A stretch of DNA of 64,000 nt from Ochrovirga pacifica (lineage in GTDB: Bacteria; Bacteroidota; Bacteroidia; Flavobacteriales; Flavobacteriaceae): NCBI RefSeq assembly GCF_000220525.1, contig NZ_AFPK01000028.1:1-64000 (forward strand), written 5' to 3'. The notes below the pieces were generated by a model. It saw nothing but the letters and a program-made list of their open reading frames with translations, did no database searches and was not told the origin of the DNA. Shown here in pieces: positions 16,470 to 31,634 of the stretch. Positions within the stretch are counted from its first letter, which is position 1; each line of letters opens with the position of its first letter. Position numbers and translations under genes: made by a program.

Positions 16470-18164
16470 TTACATCCACATTTCTCTTATTTTACCAATC
16501 ATTTCAGCTTCTACGTTCTCATATTCGTCTTTTTGTAATAAACTATATTTTTCTTTTAACTCTACAATTGGACATTCAAAATCAACACCATAAGATTCAG
16601 CAATACCAAGAATTAGTTGACTGTCTTTAGGTTGAGAATCTTTAATAAAATGCATAATCTTATCTATATGCTCAATATCTTGATCTTGTTGATTAGGAGA
16701 GTCAACTATCAATGGAAAGTAAGTAGAGGAAGAGTATTTTTTCATAACATGAAAGAATGAAAAATAATAAGCTATTAAAGCTCGAGGTCTTGAGCTACCA
16801 GTTTCTTTTGATTCGATAACACTTGTTATTGATTTATATTCGTTTTCGGTTAAAGAATGTATGTCAAGTTTTTTTAAAAAAGAAGTCATTTTATTTTTGA
16901 AAAAAACAACTATTTCATTTTTACGTTTTTTACTTTCAAATTCTTTAAGTTTTTTTTCAAGATTTTGTTTTTCAATTGTGTTTTCAACTATTATCTGTTT
17001 TAATTCAGCGTATTTCTGAGAAAAAATTGATTTGACATGCTTTTTTCCAGAGCTTTCAATTACGTCTTTAAGATTTAACTTACCTTTTTTCTCATTGAGA
17101 ATTTTATTAAGGTTTGTTAACTCTCCAACCGTCGAATTCAGTTTATTATTTTCATTAAATATCTTGTCGTTTATTTCTTTGACTTCTTTTTTTAACTCAA
17201 CTAATAAATCTTTACTTTTTTGTTCGTCTTGAGCTATTTCAAACCTTTCTGTGAAAGAATTTTCATAAACGGCACCACAAGTTGGACACCCAATTAGTTC
17301 AGGTAATTTTTCAGATGCAAACTTTAAATCATTATGGCTTTCTATAATTGCTTGCTTAACAATGTTTATCTGGGTATCATAAGATGCTTTTAAGTGATAT
17401 AGATCGTGTAAATCAGACTTTAAGTTTTCTTCTTTTTTCTTTAAAAATTCTAACTCAGTTAACAACTCAGTAATCTCTTCTTTAAAATCCTCAATATTTA
17501 TATTAAATTGAGTTTGAGATAATTTTTCTTTTATATCATTAAGGATTTTACCAGTTATTTTTTGTTCCTTTTCAGTCTCATCAATGATTCTTAAATATGA
17601 ATCAATTTCTTTTTTTGTTTCATAGTACTTGTTTGGGCGAATACCTGAATGGTAGTTAATACATTGATTTCTATATTGTTTAATTTGTTGTAGAGATTTA
17701 AATGAAGACCAGCTTTTTGACCAGCTTTCATCTTGGTCTACATAAAAAGGCAGTAACAAATATGCAGGAGGAGGAATTATAAAACCACTATTTTGCGATT
17801 GAAATAGAGGTTTGAAATCGAATAGTTCACTTAAAAAAGGAGCTAATTCTTTTGTTACTGAGTCAAAAAGTCCCAGTAAATCATCATTAGAGTCATATAT
17901 TGCAAACCGTTTGTTGTCTCTTATAATTTGATATCTAACGGAGTCAAGTTCAAATTTAACTAGTGATATTACATTTGCACCTTTAAACTTAGAGTTCATT
18001 AATGGTTCTGCACCAAAAGTTCTATATATACTTTTAATTAATGATGATTTCCCAGTATGGTTTTTACCATATATTAGGGTTCTATGTCTGTCAAATTCAA
18101 CTCTTTTTGCTTTTTTCTCCTTTTGAGATAGCAATAGAATTTCCGATATGAATAACTTTTTCAT
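16470..18164 (-). CDS. SMC/Rad50-like ABC ATPase of a putative defence module (LmuB-like)
   Basis: A 564-aa ATPase with the Rad50/SMC layout. Walker A is IYGKNHTGKSS (31-41); a Q-loop-like segment follows at about 143. Heptad-rich coiled coil spans about 180-290 and 305-425, with a CPTC zinc-hook motif (293-296) at the turn. The distal half has SSRPRAL in the signature position and the Walker B-like strand PLIVDSPNQQ (484-492), where the usual catalytic Glu after Asp is Ser. This resembles the DUF3732/ABC-3C ATPases and LmuB. It lies 44 bases downstream of a DUF4297-type nuclease on the same strand and is visibly AT-richer than neighbouring genes. The exact system type is inferred. Confidence 0.72.
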   Translation of the reverse strand: MKKLFISEILLLSQKEKKAKRVEFDRHRTLIYGKNHTGKSSLIKSIYRTFGAEPLMNSKFKGANVISLVKFELDSVRYQIIRDNKRFAIYDSNDDLLGLFDSVTKELAPFLSELFDFKPLFQSQNSGFIIPPPAYLLLPFYVDQDESWSKSWSSFKSLQQIKQYRNQCINYHSGIRPNKYYETKKEIDSYLRIIDETEKEQKITGKILNDIKEKLSQTQFNINIEDFKEEITELLTELEFLKKKEENLKSDLHDLYHLKASYDTQINIVKQAIIESHNDLKFASEKLPELIGCPTCGAVYENSFTERFEIAQDEQKSKDLLVELKKEVKEINDKIFNENNKLNSTVGELTNLNKILNEKKGKLNLKDVIESSGKKHVKSIFSQKYAELKQIIVENTIEKQNLEKKLKEFESKKRKNEIVVFFKNKMTSFLKKLDIHSLTENEYKSITSVIESKETGSSRPRALIAYYFSFFHVMKKYSSSTYFPLIVDSPNQQDQDIEHIDKIMHFIKDSQPKDSQLILGIAESYGVDFECPIVELKEKYSLLQKDEYENVEAEMIGKIREMWM

Positions 18165-18208
18165 TCTTCTTTACTCTTAAGTTTCTTACCAATTTTTTTA
18201 AGCTTCCT

Positions 18209-19297
18209 TTATTTTTCATTTAGAACTTTAATAATTAAACATTTTATAAAATATTTATCGTAAAAAGTATTTTCAATTTTACATTCACAATGGTTTACTA
18301 TTTCTATCAAATCAAATGAATCTTTAATGTTTCCATTTTCTATTTCAGTACTAATAATAGTTTCAATATCCTGATATAGGTTGTTTAATAATATATTGTT
18401 ACTGTCTTTTATAAGAGTTGCCGATAGGTCTCGCCAAGCTTTTTTAAATTTTAAAAGTTCGATATGACCTATATTACATCTTTCTATAGAATATTTAATT
18501 TCTAACCACTCTTCATCAATACTTTTATAAAGACCTGCTTTTTTTAAAAAAGCTAAGAATTGTTTTTTACTAATTCCTTTAATTTCAATTAGTTCCTCTA
18601 AATTTGAAATAGATTTGTCTGTAACTGTAGATTCGGTTCTTCTTGAAATCTCATTGAACACCTGTTTATATGCCAACTCAGGGTTAACTTTATTTTCTGG
18701 GTTAATTTTGTTTATTAATTTACTTAGCTCTCCTAGACAATGTGTTGAACTATCAATGTTGCTTAGATTTGTGACATGAAAATGAGTAATATCTTTAAAA
18801 TCAATTGTTTTTAAAGAATGTTCATTTTTTATTGCATCTTCAAAGACCTTTAGTACTTTGGGATCTAATTCATCTGCTTTAATTATTGTTTTTTTTAGAG
18901 ATTCAGTTCCGTTTGCAAGGTTCTTGAAGGAAAATTTTGCGTTTGATACAAAATTTAAAGAATTTGTATTATTAGAGAAGTTTATTTTATTTAAGTAAAG
19001 CTTTCCACTTATTGAAAGCGGTTCTTTTTTGGTTTTCTTTGTTAAAGCAGTATTTGTCCAGTTCCCAAAGTCTTTAGATTTTATTTGGTAGAAATCTATT
19101 TTATCCGGGTTGGTTGAAGAATCAAGAACAACAAGGTCGTCGTGAAAATCAAATAGAAATACATAATCATCTTTCTTCTCATGATTAGATAAAAGAAGAT
19201 AAAGAGAAAGATTTTTCTGGAATATATATTTTCTAGCAGTTTTACTTCCAGATTCTTCCCTTGGTATTAATGATATAATTTCTTTTTCTAGCTTCAT
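18209..19297 (-). CDS. DUF4297/Cap4-like nuclease of a putative defence module (LmuA-like)
   Basis: A 362-aa protein whose first 80 residues match the Cap4/DUF4297 PD-(D/E)xK nuclease layout: basic N-terminal helix SGSKTARKYIFQKNL (16-30), FDFHDDLVVLD (49-59) with the metal-binding Asp, and the strand FYQIKSKD (69-76), in which Q-x-K replaces E-x-K. Residues of about 90-362 match nothing I know and probably bind the ATPase or form a sensor. In Lamassu and related ABC-3C systems such a nuclease is the toxic effector released by the SMC-like ATPase. It is the first gene of the module. I see no good -7 box upstream. Confidence 0.65.
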   Translation of the reverse strand: MKLEKEIISLIPREESGSKTARKYIFQKNLSLYLLLSNHEKKDDYVFLFDFHDDLVVLDSSTNPDKIDFYQIKSKDFGNWTNTALTKKTKKEPLSISGKLYLNKINFSNNTNSLNFVSNAKFSFKNLANGTESLKKTIIKADELDPKVLKVFEDAIKNEHSLKTIDFKDITHFHVTNLSNIDSSTHCLGELSKLINKINPENKVNPELAYKQVFNEISRRTESTVTDKSISNLEELIEIKGISKKQFLAFLKKAGLYKSIDEEWLEIKYSIERCNIGHIELLKFKKAWRDLSATLIKDSNNILLNNLYQDIETIISTEIENGNIKDSFDLIEIVNHCECKIENTFYDKYFIKCLIIKVLNEK

Positions 19298-21561: not shown

Positions 21562-21609
21562 ATAAAAACCTGTTTGGGCTGATGTAAGTCTGTCTAAATA
21601 GGTTTTTAT
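21562..21609. terminator. Bidirectional terminator, SDR gene / LRR-kinase gene
   Basis: ATAAAAACCTGTTT (21562-21575) pairs with AAATAGGTTTTTAT (21596-21609) over 14 positions with one G-T. It lies between convergent genes and overlaps the last bases of the kinase gene. Confidence 0.7.
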
Positions 21610-22907
21610 ATGTTTTTTAAAAGAGTTACAATTTCCGAAAAACAAGGTCTTTTATCTACTGTGGGGTGGCAACACACAGTAATAAGTGCTTCCCAAGCAG
21701 TGCGTTTTTCAGGGGGCATTGTGTTTGTAGAGGTCAATTGCAATATGTCTTCTACCAAGCAACCAAAAGCACGGACTTCTACACGCTCTATAAATTTTGA
21801 AAGAGAAGAGCGAACATCGTAAAAAGAAGCAGCTCCAAAATCTCCTAAAATTGCTTTTCCAGAAGGATGGATTAAAATATTGTGTGCATACAAATCTCCA
21901 TGCTGTATGCCTTTTTTATGCAAATGAGCAGCTACAGAAGCAATCCCTTGGCAAATGTGTAACAACTCTCTAGAGGAAAAAGAGGTACCTTTATCAAACG
22001 TATCTCTTGTACAAGTAGCTAAACTAGGGGGATTTCCTAAGTTGTTGCATTCAGCAGGAATCAATTCCATCACCAAACCTTTTTGTTGTTCTGGATGGTG
22101 TTTTAGCTGCCCAATTACAGGAATCAAATTGAGATGAAGTCCTGTGGCTATAGAAACTTTCATTTCATCTTCTGGTAAACCATCCGTGGTAACCGTTCCC
22201 TTAAATAGTTTAATGGCTACTTCTGTAGATTTACTTTTCCATAAAGCTTTATAAATTACTCCAGATGCTCCTTCTCCCAGCAAAGTATTCAATTCAAAAT
22301 CTTGCCAATGATAACTAGCTAAATTATGTAATTGTTCAGGTTGATGTGTTGCTGGATTTCCACTAAAAGCAATCCAAGCTAGTTTAGGGAGTTGAAACAA
22401 CCACAAAGGAAATTTCTGTAATTGATTGCAAGAAATTCGTAGCAACTCTAAATTTTTGCAATTAGCCATTGCCTCAGGAAGTTCTAGAAGTTGATTGCCA
22501 GCCAATCCACATTTTTGTAGCAAAGAACAAGTCCCAATACTATTGGGTAAGTAAGTAATTTTATTATCAGTTAAAATCAGCCAACGCAATTTTTTAGGAA
22601 ACACATGTTCTGGAATTTCCTTAATTTGATTCGATCGAAATCCTACCATGCTCAATTCTGGACAATCTGCCAATTCACTCGGAAATTTCTGAAATTTGTT
22701 GCGTGCAAAAAACACAATTTTTAAGTGTTTAAAGTCGCTCATATTCTTGGGTAGCTCTGACAGATTGTTGTCAGACAAATCCAATATTTCTAGACTGTTT
22801 GCTAGCGTAAAAAGTTCTTGAGGAAATTCCGACAGGCCACAAGCTAACTTTACTTTTTTGCTTCCTAGTAATGCTCCAGATTTTAAGGCTTCTAAGGTAT
22901 GTAACAT
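21606..22907 (-). CDS. Leucine-rich repeat / protein kinase fusion
   Basis: A 433-aa protein without a signal peptide, so cytosolic. Residues of about 17-185 contain seven or so leucine-rich repeats of the LxxLxLSxNxLxELP type. Residues 206-433 are a eukaryotic-like kinase: glycine loop GEGASG (211-216), AIKLF (Lys233), HGDLYAHN (336-343, with HGD in place of HRD but catalytic Asp338 and Asn343 kept), and DFG (356-358). Kinase activity is therefore plausible. It follows folK after 10 bases on the same strand. Related LRR-kinase proteins occur sporadically in Gram-negative bacteria; the target is unknown. Confidence 0.85.
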   Translation of the reverse strand: MLHTLEALKSGALLGSKKVKLACGLSEFPQELFTLANSLEILDLSDNNLSELPKNMSDFKHLKIVFFARNKFQKFPSELADCPELSMVGFRSNQIKEIPEHVFPKKLRWLILTDNKITYLPNSIGTCSLLQKCGLAGNQLLELPEAMANCKNLELLRISCNQLQKFPLWLFQLPKLAWIAFSGNPATHQPEQLHNLASYHWQDFELNTLLGEGASGVIYKALWKSKSTEVAIKLFKGTVTTDGLPEDEMKVSIATGLHLNLIPVIGQLKHHPEQQKGLVMELIPAECNNLGNPPSLATCTRDTFDKGTSFSSRELLHICQGIASVAAHLHKKGIQHGDLYAHNILIHPSGKAILGDFGAASFYDVRSSLSKFIERVEVRAFGCLVEDILQLTSTNTMPPEKRTAWEALITVCCHPTVDKRPCFSEIVTLLKNI

Positions 22908-25235: not shown

Positions 25236-25274
25236 AAAATAGATAAGTGAAAGTTGATTTTACTTATCTATTTT
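25236..25274. terminator. Bidirectional terminator, sppA / small lipoprotein gene
   Basis: AAAATAGATAAGT (25236-25248) and ACTTATCTATTTT (25262-25274) form a perfect 13-bp stem with a 13-base loop between convergent genes, overlapping the last codons of the lipoprotein gene. Confidence 0.85.
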
Positions 25275-25631
25275 GATGGTTTCTCCTTCTTGTTTAAAGT
25301 TGCTTCCTAGGTAAGAGCCTTTAAATTGATATGATTTTTCTTTAATCCCTGTAATTTTTACAACAAACGGAATGCTGTCCAGTTTACTTTTGGGATTTAC
25401 CTTTCTTAGCTCGTATTCAAAATCAGATTTCCAGTAAATGGAAAACGTATCTACTTGATTTTTATAAAACTCTATTTGTAACATTTCAGTTCTGTAAAAA
25501 GTAGAGCTATCTTTTCTTTTGCCTAAATAGGTTTTAAAATGTCCTTCTTTAAAATAAGAAACATCTGTTTTGTTTCCAGAAACGCAAGAAGTCAAAACAG
25601 ATGCTACTATGATATAAATAAGATGTTTCAT
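25260..25631 (-). CDS. Small lipoprotein of unknown function
   Basis: A 123-aa protein with a lipoprotein signal (lipobox LTSC, about 13-16) followed by a short beta-rich domain with FYKNQVDTFSIYW in the middle. It resembles a small flavobacterial family sometimes mislabelled 'DNA topoisomerase IV'; I see nothing topoisomerase-like. It lies directly downstream of purB (4-base gap) and is probably co-transcribed. The function is unknown. Confidence 0.7.
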   Translation of the reverse strand: MKHLIYIIVASVLTSCVSGNKTDVSYFKEGHFKTYLGKRKDSSTFYRTEMLQIEFYKNQVDTFSIYWKSDFEYELRKVNPKSKLDSIPFVVKITGIKEKSYQFKGSYLGSNFKQEGETIKIDK

Positions 25632-25635
25632 GTAA

Positions 25636-26979
25636 TTAAATACCTGTATAATTGCTAGGAGTAATGGCTTTTAATTCTGTTTTAATGTCGTCAGAAACTT
25701 CTAACGTATCAATAAAACTAGCAATCGTTGCTCCTGTAATTTTTTCGTTTACACGGGTTAGCCCTTTTAACGTTTCGTATGGGTTTGGATAGGCCTCTCT
25801 ACGTAAAATAGTTTGAATAGCTTCGGCAACCACTGCCCAATTATTTTCTAAGTCTTTGGCAAAAGCATCGGTGTTAATTAACAGTTTGTTCAACCCTTTT
25901 AATGTAGATGCAAATCCAATTAATGTATGTCCAAAAGGAACCCCAATATTTCTTAATACGGTAGAATCTGTTAAATCGCGTTGCAATCTAGATACTGGTA
26001 ATTTTACAGACAAGTGTTCAAAAATTGCATTGGCAATTCCTAAGTTTCCTTCAGAGTTTTCAAAATCAATAGGATTTACTTTATGAGGCATTGCTGAAGA
26101 TCCTACTTCTCCTTTTTTGATTTTTTGCTTAAAGTAATCGTTAGAAACATAAGTCCAAATATCTCTATCCAAATCAATCAAGATGGTGTTGATGCGTTTG
26201 GCAGCATCAAAAATAGCAGCCATATGATCGTAGTGTTCTATTTGTGTGGTTGGAAAAGAATGATGCAGGCCTAAAATATTTTCAACAAAATCAGTACCAA
26301 AAGACTTCCAATCAATTGTTGGGTAAGCAACATGATGTGCGTTAAAATTTCCTGTAGCTCCCCCAAATTTTGCTGCATGTGGTATTTGTTGTAACAATGT
26401 TAATTGTTGTTCAATACGCTCTACAAACACTTTAATTTCTTTTCCTAAACGTGTAGGAGATGCCGGTTGACCATGGGTTCTAGCCAACATAGATATGTCT
26501 TTCCATTCTGTAGCTAGTTCATTTAACTTGTCTACTACTAAAGACAATTCTTTAAAGTAAACTTGGTTAAACATGTCTTTAATAGACAAAGGAATGGCAG
26601 TGTTGTTAATGTCCTGAGAAGTAAGACCAAAGTGAATAAACTCTTTATATGTTTGTAATTCTAAGGCATCAAACTTTTCTTTAATAAAGTATTCTACCGC
26701 TTTTACATCGTGGTTGGTTACTTTTTCTATATCTTTTATTTTCTGAGCATCATCACTAGAAAAATCTTGATAAATAGCTCTTAAGTCATCGTACAAAGAA
26801 GTATTAAAATCTTCTAACTGAGGTAAAGGAATTTCGCACAAAGCTATAAAGTATTCAATTTCTACCTTTACTCTGTATTTTATCAATGCTTCTTCGGAGT
26901 AGTAAGCGGCTAATGAAGCTACTTTACTACGGTACCTTCCATCAATAGGAGAAATCGCATTTAAATTGGATAAACTCAT
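25636..26979 (-). CDS. purB: Adenylosuccinate lyase
   Basis: A 447-aa PurB that cleaves SAICAR and adenylosuccinate, releasing fumarate, in purine synthesis. The superfamily signature GSSAMPHKVNPIDFENSEGN is near residue 290, with HDVKAVEYF and the LTSQDIN segment also present. Size and composition match the E. coli-type clade. The ATG at 26979 (MSLSNLNAISPIDGRY) is the conserved start; an ATG at 27015 would add an unconserved leader that overlaps the promoter box. Confidence 0.95.
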   Translation of the reverse strand: MSLSNLNAISPIDGRYRSKVASLAAYYSEEALIKYRVKVEIEYFIALCEIPLPQLEDFNTSLYDDLRAIYQDFSSDDAQKIKDIEKVTNHDVKAVEYFIKEKFDALELQTYKEFIHFGLTSQDINNTAIPLSIKDMFNQVYFKELSLVVDKLNELATEWKDISMLARTHGQPASPTRLGKEIKVFVERIEQQLTLLQQIPHAAKFGGATGNFNAHHVAYPTIDWKSFGTDFVENILGLHHSFPTTQIEHYDHMAAIFDAAKRINTILIDLDRDIWTYVSNDYFKQKIKKGEVGSSAMPHKVNPIDFENSEGNLGIANAIFEHLSVKLPVSRLQRDLTDSTVLRNIGVPFGHTLIGFASTLKGLNKLLINTDAFAKDLENNWAVVAEAIQTILRREAYPNPYETLKGLTRVNEKITGATIASFIDTLEVSDDIKTELKAITPSNYTGI

Positions 26980-27001
26980 CTTATTTATTTTGATTAAAGT
27001 G

Positions 27002-27009
27002 CAAAAGTA
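27002..27009 (-). promoter_or_regulatory. -7 box of the purB promoter
   Basis: It reads TACTTTTG on the minus strand (TAnnTTTG), 22 bases before the purB ATG, and supports the downstream start. Confidence 0.5.
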
Positions 27010-27139
27010 CATCAAAATAAGAAAAGTAAAAAGATGTTTTTTTTATACTTTAGACTTTGTACTTTTAAGCCAAACAAAATTGCAATAAAACACTGAGATT
27101 TACGAATCAAACAGTGGCAATCTACCAAATTATTTATTG

Positions 27140-28735
27140 ATGAAATTTGTTCCTTTTTTAATTTTTTCACTCTTATTTACAACTTCTTTATCCGCTCAAA
27201 AAAAAGAAATCAATCAAACAGACAACCAAGGAAATAGACACGGTTATTGGGAAAAAAGATATCCTTCTGGAAGAATTCGCTATACGGGGGCTTTTCAGCA
27301 CGGAAAAGAAGTAGGAACGTTTCTTTTTTATGAAAATAAAATTGCCAACAATTATCCAGCAATTAAAAAGGTGTTTTCTGAAACTTCAACGTTGGCACAG
27401 GTTACTTTTTATGATTTTTATGGTCGTGTACAAAGCAAAGGTACATTAAACGAAAAAAATCGCGAAGGAGTTTGGGAGTTTTACAGCAGAAAAGGGAATG
27501 TAATTTTGGTAGAGAATTATAAAAACAATCAACTGCATGGAAAACGAACTGTTTATTTTGATTCGGGAGTAGTTGCCGAAGAAGCCTATTATAAAAATGG
27601 AGTTAAGGATGGAATGATGATCCGATATAGCCAACAAGGAAATAAGTTGTTAGAAATGACTTTTGTAGACGGAATTTTACATGGTCGTGCCAATTTTTAC
27701 GAAGCTAATGGAAATCTAAAAGAATCGGGATTGTATTACAAAGATTATAAAGTAGGAAGGTGGGATTATTATATTGATGGAGAGTATATGGGGTACAAAG
27801 AGCCTAACTTAAAAAGAGACAAGCCTTCGGATGAACATATTTTAAAAAGCATAGCAGATAAAAATCAACCTGATAGACCAGAATATGCCAAACTAACCGA
27901 TGAGCAAATTTTAAGAAATATAAGGGCAAAGCAAATGCTAAAACAGCCAGATTATGCCAAACTAACCGATGAACAAATTTTAGCAAACATTGCAGCTAAA
28001 AAGCAAGAAGTACAACGTTACGAGAAATTAACCGATGCAGAAATTTTGGATAACATTCGTGCCAAGCAAGAAATCGCCAATCAAGCACCGAGCTATGCTA
28101 AGTTGAGTGATGAAGAGATTTTGGCCAATATAAAAGCGAAACAAGAAACAGGAGAACTACCTTATGCACAGCTTACAGACCAAGAAATACTAGAAAATAT
28201 TAGAAAAAAGCAGCCTGAAGCTGAAAAACAGTACGCAAAAATGTCAGACGATCAGATTCTTGCAAACATTCAGGCCAAAAGGAATGAGGTTATAGAATAC
28301 GAACGTTTAACAGATGAAGAGATTTTAGCAAATATTAGAGCCAAGCAACAGGTTGAAGAAAACGAACCTGACTACGAAAAAATGACGGATGAGGAAATTT
28401 TGGCAAGTATAAAAGCCAAACGTATTAAAGCAACCCAACCTAAATACGACAAACCTACGGATGATCAAATTCTAAGAAATATGTCTTCTAAGATGGATCA
28501 GCTAATCGAAGAGAAAAAAATAGAAGATGCTGAGATTTTAGAAAACATCAGAAAGAAAAATCAAGCAAAGAACAAAAAGAAAAAAGGGATAAAGAAAATA
28601 ACAGATCAGGAAATACTAGAAAACATTGATCGTAAAAAAGAAAAACCTAAAAAGGAAGTTCAGAAATTGTCTGATGAAGAAATTTTAAAAAATATTGAAG
28701 CTAGAGAGAAGAAAAGTAAAAAGAAGCTTTATTAA
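27140..28735 (+). CDS. Secreted MORN-repeat protein with a 13-copy charged C-terminal repeat
   Basis: A 531-aa exported protein with signal peptide MKFVPFLIFSLLFTTSLSAQ. Residues of about 25-225 hold four or five MORN-2/YwqK-type repeats (GYWEKRYPSGRIRYTG, GVWEFYSRKGN, GKRTVYFDSGVV, GRANFYEANGN). From about residue 228 to the end run 13 copies of a 17-residue unit, consensus Y-x-K-L-T-D-E-E-I-L-x-N-I-R-A-K-Q, separated by 3-8 variable residues, with helix-forming, highly charged composition and a lysine-rich tail. I know no family for this unit. The TTG at 27137 is a less likely start than the ATG at 27140. Confidence 0.8.
   Translation: MKFVPFLIFSLLFTTSLSAQKKEINQTDNQGNRHGYWEKRYPSGRIRYTGAFQHGKEVGTFLFYENKIANNYPAIKKVFSETSTLAQVTFYDFYGRVQSKGTLNEKNREGVWEFYSRKGNVILVENYKNNQLHGKRTVYFDSGVVAEEAYYKNGVKDGMMIRYSQQGNKLLEMTFVDGILHGRANFYEANGNLKESGLYYKDYKVGRWDYYIDGEYMGYKEPNLKRDKPSDEHILKSIADKNQPDRPEYAKLTDEQILRNIRAKQMLKQPDYAKLTDEQILANIAAKKQEVQRYEKLTDAEILDNIRAKQEIANQAPSYAKLSDEEILANIKAKQETGELPYAQLTDQEILENIRKKQPEAEKQYAKMSDDQILANIQAKRNEVIEYERLTDEEILANIRAKQQVEENEPDYEKMTDEEILASIKAKRIKATQPKYDKPTDDQILRNMSSKMDQLIEEKKIEDAEILENIRKKNQAKNKKKKGIKKITDQEILENIDRKKEKPKKEVQKLSDEEILKNIEAREKKSKKKLY
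27820..28720 (+). repeat. Coding tandem repeat, 13 degenerate units
   Basis: DNA encoding the 13 units in the MORN-repeat protein. The units are diverged at the base level but keep the Asp-x-x-Ile-Leu-x-Asn-Ile core, so selection on the protein and not recent slippage maintains them. The period is irregular, about 60-75 bases. Confidence 0.8.
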
Positions 28736-28784: not shown

Positions 28785-28792
28785 TATCTTTG
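28785..28792 (+). promoter_or_regulatory. -7 box of the mnmA promoter
   Basis: TATCTTTG fits TAnnTTTG, 22 bases before the ATG at 28814. The -33 region is weak. Confidence 0.55.
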
Positions 28793-28813: not shown

Positions 28814-30004
28814 ATGAAACGAGTAGTCGTTGGACTTTCAGGAGGCGTAGACAGTAGTGTAGCAGCATATTTGTTGCAACAACAAGGATATGAAGTAATA
28901 GGATTGTTTATGAAAAATTGGCACGATGATTCCGTGACCATTTCTAATGAGTGTCCTTGGTTAGAAGATAGTAATGATGCCATGTTGGTAGCAGAAAAAT
29001 TGGGCATTCCTTTTCAAGTAGTTGATTTAAGCGAAGAATACAAAGAACGTATTGTAAATTATATGTTTTATGAATACGAGCGAGGACGAACTCCCAACCC
29101 TGATGTACTTTGCAACCGAGAAATAAAGTTTGATGTGTTTATGAAAATAGCACTAGATTTAGGAGCAGATTTTGTAGCAACAGGACATTATTGCCGTAGA
29201 ACCGTAACAAGTGATGATAATGGTAAAGAAGTATATCAACTGAAAGCTGGGGTTGATATCCATAAAGATCAATCGTATTTTTTATGTCAATTGTCTCAAG
29301 AACAACTGGCTAAAGCTTTGTTTCCTATAGGAGAATTAACCAAACCCGAAGTAAGAGAAATTGCCAAAGAATTAGATTTAGTAACTGCAGAGAAAAAAGA
29401 TTCTCAGGGACTTTGTTTTATTGGAAAAGTACGATTGCCAGAATTTTTACAACAAAAGCTACAACCCAAAGAAGGGGTAATTGTACAAGTTCCAAAAGAC
29501 TACAACGCCTATCAACAAGAAGTTCCTGTATTTAAAAATAAAGAAGCAGAACTGGCTTTTTATGCTCAAAAGTACGAGTATAGCATTGATAGTGGAAAAA
29601 CCGTTGCCAAGCATCAAGGGGCTCACTATTTTACCAAAGGTCAGCGAAAAGGATTGGCTGTAGGGGGAACCCAAGAGCCATTGTTTGTAATAGAAACCGA
29701 TGTTGAAGAAAATATAATTTATGCAGGAGAAGGTAAACAACATCCTGGTTTGTATAGAAAAGTATTGTTTGTGGCCAATGAAGAATTGCATTGGGTAAGA
29801 AAAGATTTGGCTTTAAATATTGGGCAAACCTTAGAAGTGTCCGCTAGAATTCGTTACCGTCAACCTTTAGAAAAAGCCACTTTATACCAAGTAGCTAACG
29901 GAATGTATGTTGCTTTTAACAATCCACAATCAGCCATACAAGAAGGGCAATTTGTAGCTTGGTATGCCAAGGAAGAATTGTTAGGTTCTGGCGTGATTGC
30001 TTAA
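28814..30004 (+). CDS. mnmA: tRNA-specific 2-thiouridylase
   Basis: A 396-aa MnmA, which thiolates U34 in the wobble position of Glu/Gln/Lys tRNAs. The PP-loop is [14 protein letters not shown] at the N-terminus; the catalytic cysteines are in [11 protein letters not shown] and GLCFIGKV, and the DKDQSYFL-like segment ([11 protein letters not shown]) is present. The ATG at 28814 is preferred over an in-frame TTG at 28808. The subtilase gene follows after 10 bases. Confidence 0.95.
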
Positions 30005-30014
30005 AATATAAAAA

Positions 30015-31634
30015 ATGAAGTATTTTGCTGTGCTTTTGTTGTTCATTTCCTATCAGCTAAAAGCACAGGAACATGCTTGGATTTTTTTTAAAGACAAACC
30101 ACAAGCAAAGTATTATTTGCAAAATCCTTTGCAAATGCTTTCTCAAAAAGCTTTGGATCGTAGAACTGAGCAGCAAATAGCTTTAGACCTAAGTGATGTC
30201 CCCGTAGCACTTAACTATCTACAAACCCTAAAAAGAGAAACCGAATTACAAGTATACGGAGCTTCTAAATGGAGAAATGCAGTGCATGTAGTAGGAACAG
30301 AAGAACAAGTGCTAAAGACATTAAGTCTTCCTTTTGTAGCTAGAGTACAGTTTGCCAATCGTTCTTTAGAACGTACAAATTTAAGTATAGATATTCCCGA
30401 AAGTACAGATGCTCAGCAAATACAGCAAGCAGACTCTACCGCCAAGTTTTATGGCAATACAACATCTCAAAATTCGATATTACACTTAGATGAACTCCAT
30501 AAAAAAGGGTATTTGGGAGCAGGTATAGATATTGCTGTTTTTGACGAAGGGTTTTACGGAGTTCGTAAGGTTTCGGTATTTTCTCATTTGTTGGATGGAA
30601 ACTTAGAAAATGGAGAAATTAAAAACACATACAATTTTGTGAATCAAACAACGGATGTATATCAAGAAATAGGCAGAACTCACGGATTACACGTATTATC
30701 TACCTTAGCAGCATATAAGAAAGATTTTTTGATAGGAACTGCACCCAACGCTAATTATCACTTATTTGTTACCGAAGATTACCAAGGGTTAGACCATCCG
30801 TTAGAAGAATTTTATTGGGTACAAGCTGCTGAAAAAGCAGATAGTTTAGGGGTATCAATCATAAATAGTTCTTTGGGATATACACAGTTTGCAGAAGCTA
30901 AATACAACTATACTTATGCAGATTTAAATGGGACTACAGCCTTTGTAACAATCGGAGCAGCTATAGCAGCATCTAAAGGAATTTTAGTCGTAAATGCTGT
31001 GGGAAATTTAGGAAATAAATCATGGAAGTACTTGGCTGCACCTGCAGATGCTCCTAATATTCTTGCTGTTGGTGCAGTAGATGTGCATAAGCAAATTGCA
31101 AGCTTTTCTTCTTACGGACCTACTGCAGATGAACGTGTAAAACCAGAAACTTTGGCACAAGGAGTTGCGGTTAAAGTAGTGAATACAGACAACCAAATTG
31201 TGGAACAGAGTGGAACATCATTTTCTTGTCCTATCATAGCAGGTATTGCAGCTTGTTTGTGGCAGGCATTTTCGTTTAAAACCAACTTGGAAATTAGAGA
31301 GATGATCATTCAGAATTCTCAATGGGTACATCAACCTAGAGCACAAGAAGGATATGGTGTGCTAGATCTTAAAGGAATTACTATTCCCGAAAAAAAACAG
31401 TTTCCATTCCAGTTTTTTTGGTCTCTTCAACAAGTAGAAGTTTTGTTTGATGTTGATTTTAAGGGATTTGTTTGGGTTGATGTTTTTAGCATTACAGGAA
31501 AAAAGCTTATCCATTGGAAATGTTCACCAGATCAAAACATACAGTCATTTAAGCAATTGGCTAGCGGAATTTATGTGGTAAAGTACAGATATCAGCAGCA
31601 AACAGAAATCAGAAGAATACAAGTGGGAAACTGA
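30015..31634 (+). CDS. Subtilisin-like S8 serine protease with T9SS sorting domain
   Basis: A 539-aa secreted protease. A signal peptide ends near residue 17 (YQLKAQ), a pro-region follows, and then the S8 domain: Asp in IAVFDEGFYG, His in RTHGLHVLSTL, oxyanion region VNAVGNLGN and Ser in SGTSFSCPIIAG. The last 75 residues look like a type A T9SS C-terminal sorting domain (VFSITGKKL...LASGIYVVKYR), so export to the cell surface by the gliding/type IX pathway is expected. It lies 10 bases after mnmA and is followed by an FMN oxidoreductase after 17 bases. Confidence 0.88.
   Translation: MKYFAVLLLFISYQLKAQEHAWIFFKDKPQAKYYLQNPLQMLSQKALDRRTEQQIALDLSDVPVALNYLQTLKRETELQVYGASKWRNAVHVVGTEEQVLKTLSLPFVARVQFANRSLERTNLSIDIPESTDAQQIQQADSTAKFYGNTTSQNSILHLDELHKKGYLGAGIDIAVFDEGFYGVRKVSVFSHLLDGNLENGEIKNTYNFVNQTTDVYQEIGRTHGLHVLSTLAAYKKDFLIGTAPNANYHLFVTEDYQGLDHPLEEFYWVQAAEKADSLGVSIINSSLGYTQFAEAKYNYTYADLNGTTAFVTIGAAIAASKGILVVNAVGNLGNKSWKYLAAPADAPNILAVGAVDVHKQIASFSSYGPTADERVKPETLAQGVAVKVVNTDNQIVEQSGTSFSCPIIAGIAACLWQAFSFKTNLEIREMIIQNSQWVHQPRAQEGYGVLDLKGITIPEKKQFPFQFFWSLQQVEVLFDVDFKGFVWVDVFSITGKKLIHWKCSPDQNIQSFKQLASGIYVVKYRYQQQTEIRRIQVGN

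What the first reader, a model, noticed from the sequence alone, without database searches (positions are those of the whole stretch)
27140..28735. Exported MORN-type protein with 13 copies of an unfamiliar TDEEILxNIRAKQ unit
After ordinary MORN-2 repeats, 57% of the protein is a tandem array with a strong Asp-x-x-Ile-Leu-x-Asn-Ile core, charged edges and variable linkers. The DNA has diverged while the protein pattern is kept. It would form a long series of amphipathic helices, which suggests a periplasmic or surface scaffold or a binding array. I know no described family for this unit.
Basis: partly seen in the sequence, partly recalled or inferred. Interest (0 to 1): 0.5.

Follow-up and report, generated by a model that had tools for sequence, protein, structure and literature searches.

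The report
MORN protein with multiplied helix string
A probably exported protein common in flavobacteria has, in one small group of them, gained a tail of 6 to 15 near-identical short helices of no described family, which looks like a way to bind one partner many times over.

Summary
The ORF at 27140-28735 (+) encodes 531 aa: a likely signal peptide, MORN_2 repeats (above Pfam's cut-off) and 13 tandem units of 22-26 aa covering 57% of the protein.

The unit reaches no cut-off in Pfam or NCBIfam and has no convincing PDB match by sequence or fold. It is present in 8 of 8 genomes searched from the window's genus and the sister genus that holds Wenyingzhuangia, always on this MORN protein, in 6 to 15 copies. 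In a sample of 397 genomes of the family a profile finds it convincingly in 3, all from that clade.

The MORN protein is widespread (228 of those 397), usually just upstream of mnmA (59 of 77 loci read), and elsewhere has a tail of 25 residues or fewer (68 of 77). One other species has six copies of a different helix unit there; two genus-mates have one copy.

The array is under purifying selection (dN/dS 0.07-0.19). Each unit is predicted as one helix with a conserved face. I read it as a multivalent string of docking helices on an exported MORN scaffold. The partner is unknown and nothing was tested at the bench.

The parts
27140..28735 (+). whole gene: MORN_2 protein with C-terminal helix array, 531 aa
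27140..27196 (+). likely signal peptide (residues 1-19, ending ...SLSA)
   Evidence: read from the sequence; no signal-peptide program run
27197..27805 (+). MORN_2 repeat region (about residues 20-222); best Pfam stretch at residues 132-153 (27533-27598)
   Evidence: beta-strand prediction
27806..27826 (+). basic junction (residues 223-229) before the first unit; in 68 of 77 loci read the protein ends 0-25 residues after position 222
27827..28732 (+). array of 13 units of 22-26 residues (the last one 21), consensus YxKL(T/S)DEEILxNIxxK
27827..27895 (+). first unit, whose closest unit is the first unit in each of the three relatives compared
28457..28732 (+). last four units (10-13), divergent end set; units 10 and 11 have positional counterparts near the end of relatives' arrays
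28814..30004 (+). mnmA, downstream neighbour on the same strand in 59 of 77 loci read
25636..27015 (-). purB, divergent upstream neighbour

Best explanation
The protein is an exported MORN_2 scaffold whose C-terminus carries a string of short, separate helices, each displaying the same face (D2, I5, L6, N8, I9, K12 of the unit). Each helix is held by an N-capping box (T/S-x-x-E/Q) with a hydrophobic residue before it and a linker. The helices most likely dock on repeated or clustered copies of one partner in the periplasm or at the outer membrane (or on each other), so that unit number sets avidity and reach. The array grew by duplication of internal units from a short ancestral tail in the common ancestor of the window's genus and Wenyingzhuangia, and its number drifts while the face is kept by selection. 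Shown: the repeats, their clade, the variation in number, the purifying selection, the conservation pattern. Predicted: one helix per unit. Inferred: export, docking, multivalency, partner.
For: Thirteen regular units; present in 8 of 8 clade genomes with 13, 15, 13, 7, 6, 6, 6 and 7 units. dN/dS of the array 0.07-0.19 over six species pairs, like the MORN part at 0.06-0.22. Over 73 units I5 is 73 of 73, I9 and K12 72 of 73, D2 and L6 70 of 73, N or S at 8 in 72 of 73; these six lie within a 160-degree arc of a helix and the information moment at 100 degrees exceeds the permuted ones (0.252 against 0.102, fraction 0.0004). AlphaFold2 gives one helix per unit in the four-unit model, and in the full model 12 of 13 units have a helix that starts one residue after the unit's start. 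An unrelated species shows a different unit amplified at the same site, with single-copy forms in two of its three genus-mates that have the protein.
Against: No partner is known and no interaction was tested. Positions 2, 5, 6 and 9 are part of the search pattern, so only positions 8 and 12 are independent evidence of the face; the information moment peaks near 110 degrees rather than 100 among the angles tried. AlphaFold2 confidence is low (full model mean pLDDT 49.3, pTM 0.32 from 2 sequences; four-unit model 68.8, pTM 0.33 from 5), and units 10-11 are drawn as one long helix. Unit number varies from 6 to 15, so no fixed valency is needed. Location is unproven.
Confidence: 0.45

Rival explanations
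1. The units pack on each other into a compact or superhelical solenoid, so the conserved face is the inter-unit core and the array is a structural extension or spacer rather than a set of docking sites.
For: The conserved face holds three hydrophobic residues plus a conserved N and an oppositely charged D and K, as an inter-helix interface might. Regular 22-26 residue period in all eight proteins.
Against: With one helix per roughly 23 residues there is only one layer of helices; AlphaFold2 finds no confident packing (pTM 0.33) and Foldseek finds no PDB match better than E 6.7. The models are shallow, so this is weak evidence.
Confidence: 0.25
2. The array is a self-association or coiled-coil element that makes the MORN protein oligomerise, in keeping with the C-terminal dimerisation of some eukaryotic MORN proteins.
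For: TbMORN1 and its apicomplexan relatives dimerise through their C-termini and are described as protein-protein modules (abstract of PMC7725318). Balanced charge of the array in the window (63 K+R, 63 D+E) would suit helix-helix pairing.
Against: Unit lengths of 22-26 do not keep a heptad phase and the predicted helices are broken between most units. The eukaryotic dimers form through MORN repeats, not a helical tail.
Confidence: 0.15
3. Nearly neutral repeat expansion: a tolerated, disordered, charged tail without its own function.
For: Restricted to one small clade; the count varies between 6 and 15; AlphaFold2 confidence is low.
Against: dN/dS of the array is 0.07-0.19 over six pairs, about that of the MORN part; synonymous change between units is high (mean pS 0.70-0.86 in three proteins) while core residues are kept.
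Confidence: 0.1
4. Membrane-lying amphipathic helices that hold the protein to the inner leaflet of the outer membrane.
For: A hydrophobic stripe I5-L6-I9 in every unit; MORN proteins are often assumed to bind lipids (abstract of PMC7725318).
Against: Mean hydrophobicity is negative and the moment only slightly above shuffles (0.336 against 0.296 +/- 0.016). The cited abstract reports no membrane binding by TbMORN1.
Confidence: 0.05

Closest known systems
MORN_2 repeat proteins (Pfam PF07661), in particular the flavobacterial protein upstream of mnmA
   Same: Same N-terminal MORN_2 region and, in 59 of 77 loci read, the same position upstream of mnmA.
   Different: Most of the relatives end 0-25 residues after the MORN region (68 of 77); this one has a 302-residue array.
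The six-unit SLEEL array of genome G002 (unnamed species of the same family)
   Same: Same protein, same place after the MORN region, about the same period (23-24 residues), one helix-like unit with S/T-x-E-E-(I/L) and a Y-x-K linker.
   Different: Different unit; profile-profile comparison gives probability 0.6% over 7 columns; genus-mates have one copy or none.
Leptospira LIC20035 family adhesin (NCBIfam NF033566)
   Same: Matches in the MORN region only (residues 121-220, E 1.5e-5).
   Different: 24 bits against a cut-off of 250; no match to the array.
Fusobacterium nucleatum MORN2-domain proteins
   Same: Bacterial MORN2 proteins outside the cytoplasm: found in outer-membrane vesicles (passages of PMC10434195).
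   Different: Not compared by sequence here; those passages say their suggested role in adhesion and invasion has not been shown.

Membership tests
MORN_2 repeat protein (PF07661) | Score above Pfam's gathering cut-off with several repeat stretches | tested here: met
   40.5 bits against 29.6, three stretches; a single DNA-level stretch alone is below it, 23.7 bits
MORN_2 repeat protein (PF07661) | Orthology to the flavobacterial protein upstream of mnmA | tested here: met
   228 of 397 family genomes match at E <= 1e-15; mnmA downstream on the same strand in 59 of 77 loci read, the other 18 having none within the stretch held
LIC20035 family adhesin (NF033566) | Score above the NCBIfam cut-off of 250 bits | tested here: not met
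   24 bits, MORN region only
Known helical repeat family (Pfam, NCBIfam) | Array scores above a curated cut-off | tested here: not met
   Array alone: best Pfam hits DUF7936 17.9 (cut-off 27), PDDEXK_12 13.7 (27), CAK-anch_MAT1 11.2 (22) bits; no NCBIfam family
Alpha-solenoid (TPR-like, two helices per unit) | Units of two antiparallel helices | tested here: inconclusive
   One helix per 22-25 residue unit in a four-unit model of moderate confidence; no Foldseek match with E under 6.7
Continuous coiled coil | Unbroken helix with heptad spacing | tested here: not met
   Spacings 22-26, helices broken between most units, though 441-480 is drawn unbroken
Secreted or periplasmic protein | Functional signal peptide | not testable with these tools
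   Typical-looking N-terminus in the window and relatives

The most novel reading that the evidence does not exclude
The C-terminus of this exported MORN family is a recurrent site where a single docking helix is amplified into a multivalent string. It happened at least twice with different helices (DEEIL-type in the window's clade, SLEEL-type in G002), and in the second case the one-copy stage is still visible in genus-mates. Unit number would then be an evolvable dial of binding strength for a partner that many flavobacteria share.
Probability: 0.35. Interest if true: 0.6.

Novelty: new variant of a known kind. Interest (0 to 1): 0.42.

Why it matters
Bacterial MORN_2 proteins are common, but the passages read on Fusobacterium say their proposed roles are unproven. 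A family in which nature has added 1, 6, 7, 13 or 15 copies of one helix to the same scaffold gives a ready-made dose series for finding the partner: pull-downs with the array should enrich it strongly. The unit also has no curated family and could be described as one.

Tried and rejected
Known repeat family: searched Pfam, NCBIfam, PHROGs, PDB sequences and PDB folds. The weak hits were set aside: DUF7936 (E 0.0053 with the array alone, below cut-off), PHROGs 34020 and 6334 (E 0.0008-0.0009 with the array alone, over 12-24 residues, no stretch passing on its own), bL27m of a mitochondrial ribosome (E 0.0046, residues 195-266), SET7/9 (E 0.0065, MORN part).

Array elsewhere: plasmids, no match; viral contigs, 551 pattern matches but none a relative. 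In the family sample two genomes outside the clade gave E 0.0012 and 0.0071 (G356, G256): the frame of the first, read, holds no repeat array; the second has three stop codons in the match and was not read further. In a phylum sample of 395 genomes seven others gave E 0.001-0.007; read, none shows a series of the unit; four are the same non-repeat protein in one genus.

Homology of the two arrays: hhalign of unit profiles found none, but 24-column profiles have little power, and both share a Y-x-K linker and a capping box, so a common one-unit seed is not excluded.

The one-off open frame of 579 aa reported for G139 is not an array: the MORN frame ends 5 residues after position 222 (L096).

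Literature: no paper in the library holds both Wenyingzhuangia and MORN; four other term searches gave listings from which I saw no description of the unit. Subscription journals are mostly not held.

Full report
Observation. The ORF at 27140-28735 (+) encodes 531 residues. A core pattern finds 13 units at residues 230-511, spaced 22-26 residues, where shuffles give 0.106 on average and at most 2. The array takes 302 residues, 57% of the protein. Between units the DNA has drifted: no array of that length by Tandem Repeats Finder, mean nucleotide identity of cores 63%, mean pS 0.82 and pN 0.27 over 78 pairs. Pfam confirms MORN_2 before it. The N-terminus looks like a signal peptide; this was read by eye.

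Who has it. In the window's own genus one genome is held, the window's. In the sister genus all 7 of 7 genomes have the same protein, and all 7 carry the array; one of them is Wenyingzhuangia sp. 2_MG-2023, whose named record gives the identical gene. Unit numbers are 13 (window), 15, 13, 7, 6, 6, 6 and 7. A profile of the array searched in 397 genomes from 237 genera of the family finds 3 convincing genomes, all of this clade, and two weak matches (E 0.0012, 0.0071) that are not arrays as far as read. In 395 genomes of the phylum it finds the window's genome and seven weak matches, none a series of units. Plasmid and viral collections gave none.

The protein without the array. The MORN region is widespread: 228 of 397 family genomes match at E <= 1e-15. 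I looked at the open frame of all 228 (150 rows printed, 77 genomes, one): frames are 199-303 codons except for the window (548), two clade genomes (374, 367), G002 (373) and G139 (579, where the MORN frame itself has a 5-residue tail). These open frames count from stop to stop and are only a guide. In 77 loci read in detail, 68 have 0-25 residues after position 222 and 9 have 138-347: the 8 clade members and G002. Of 65 short tails of at least 5 residues, 61 have two or more K or R. In 59 of 77 loci mnmA follows on the same strand; 18 have none in the stretch held. In the window, in L032 and in Polaribacter glomeratus (L033) purB, mnmA, a subtilase and a further gene flank it.

A second array. 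G002, from another genus, has six copies of a different unit (S/T-L/W-E-E-I/L-x-x-R-K) after the MORN region. Of the six genomes of that genus, four have the protein: two of G002's mates end in one copy of this unit, one has none. Among the 68 short tails only those two hold such a motif. The MORN tree puts G002 with its three genus-mates (SH-aLRT 97) and the eight DEEIL proteins in another clade (100); the MnmA tree also gives the eight as one clade (100). Support between the two groups is modest, and hhalign of the units gives probability 0.6% over 7 columns. Independent amplification is the simplest reading; loss in three mates or a shared one-unit seed is not excluded.

Growth of the array. 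The first unit of the window is most like the first unit of each of three relatives; unit 11 is most like the corresponding EDAEIL-type unit in all three; unit 10 pairs with its positional counterpart in two of three and ties in the third; middle units match several units about equally. This fits gain and loss of units in the middle with kept edges. The last two units do not follow this neatly.

Selection. Over six species pairs dN/dS is 0.07-0.19 for the array and 0.06-0.22 for the MORN part; dS is saturated for the window-L032 pair. The array is therefore constrained about as much as the domain.

Shape. AlphaFold2 on the full protein with two sequences is poor (pLDDT 49.3, pTM 0.32), yet 12 of 13 units have a helix starting one residue after the unit start; units 10 and 11 are drawn as one long helix. 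A four-unit model from five in-register segments gives four separate helices, pLDDT 68.8, pTM 0.33. Foldseek finds nothing in the PDB better than E 6.7. Over 73 units the best-kept positions are I5 (73), I9 and K12 (72 each), D2 and L6 (70 each), N8 (58 N, 14 S). Positions 2, 5, 6 and 9 are in the search pattern; 8 and 12 are not, and stand above the other free positions (3.52 and 4.22 bits against at most 2.65). All six fall within a 160-degree arc. Hydrophobic amphipathicity is slight. T/S-D-E-E with a hydrophobic residue before it and I at position 5 is the textbook capping box with hydrophobic staple (recalled, not from a call).

Mechanism. A set of identical, polar-and-hydrophobic helix faces, kept by selection while their number drifts, is best read as many copies of one docking helix. 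The partner may be a repeated or clustered exported component. Rivals are inter-unit packing (solenoid), self-association, a tolerated tail, and membrane lying; the last two are disfavoured by the selection and hydrophobicity results. The TbMORN1 paper (abstract) describes MORN repeats as protein-protein modules and found no membrane binding, which suits a scaffold reading but concerns eukaryotes.

Verdict. A real, selected, clade-specific repeat of no curated family on a well-spread MORN_2 protein: a new variant of a known kind.

Noticed in passing
window 16470-19297 (-): An adjacent pair that matches LmuB (E 3.7e-197) and LmuA with a Cap4 nuclease domain (E 1.5e-77): a Lamassu-type anti-phage defence system.
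   Followed up: partly
window 21606-22907 (-): A protein with leucine-rich repeats followed by a protein-kinase domain (Pfam LRR_8 and Pkinase), an unusual eukaryote-like layout.
   Followed up: no
window 25260-25631 (-): Small protein with a lipobox-like N-terminus (LTSC), 75% identical in Wenyingzhuangia L032 and 39% in Polaribacter L033, no Pfam match at E 1e-4, beside purB.
   Followed up: no
window 28785-28792: TATCTTTG in the gap before mnmA, like the Bacteroidota -7 promoter element TAnnTTTG (consensus recalled), so mnmA may have its own promoter despite the conserved order.
   Followed up: no
window's genome as a whole (G000, genus code g1): The genome has a genus code of its own, yet both the MORN and MnmA trees place it among the Wenyingzhuangia-genus (g247) sequences; the genus split may not follow these genes.
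   Followed up: partly
window 30015-31634 (+): Subtilase (Peptidase_S8) after mnmA, found next to mnmA also in several relatives.
   Followed up: no
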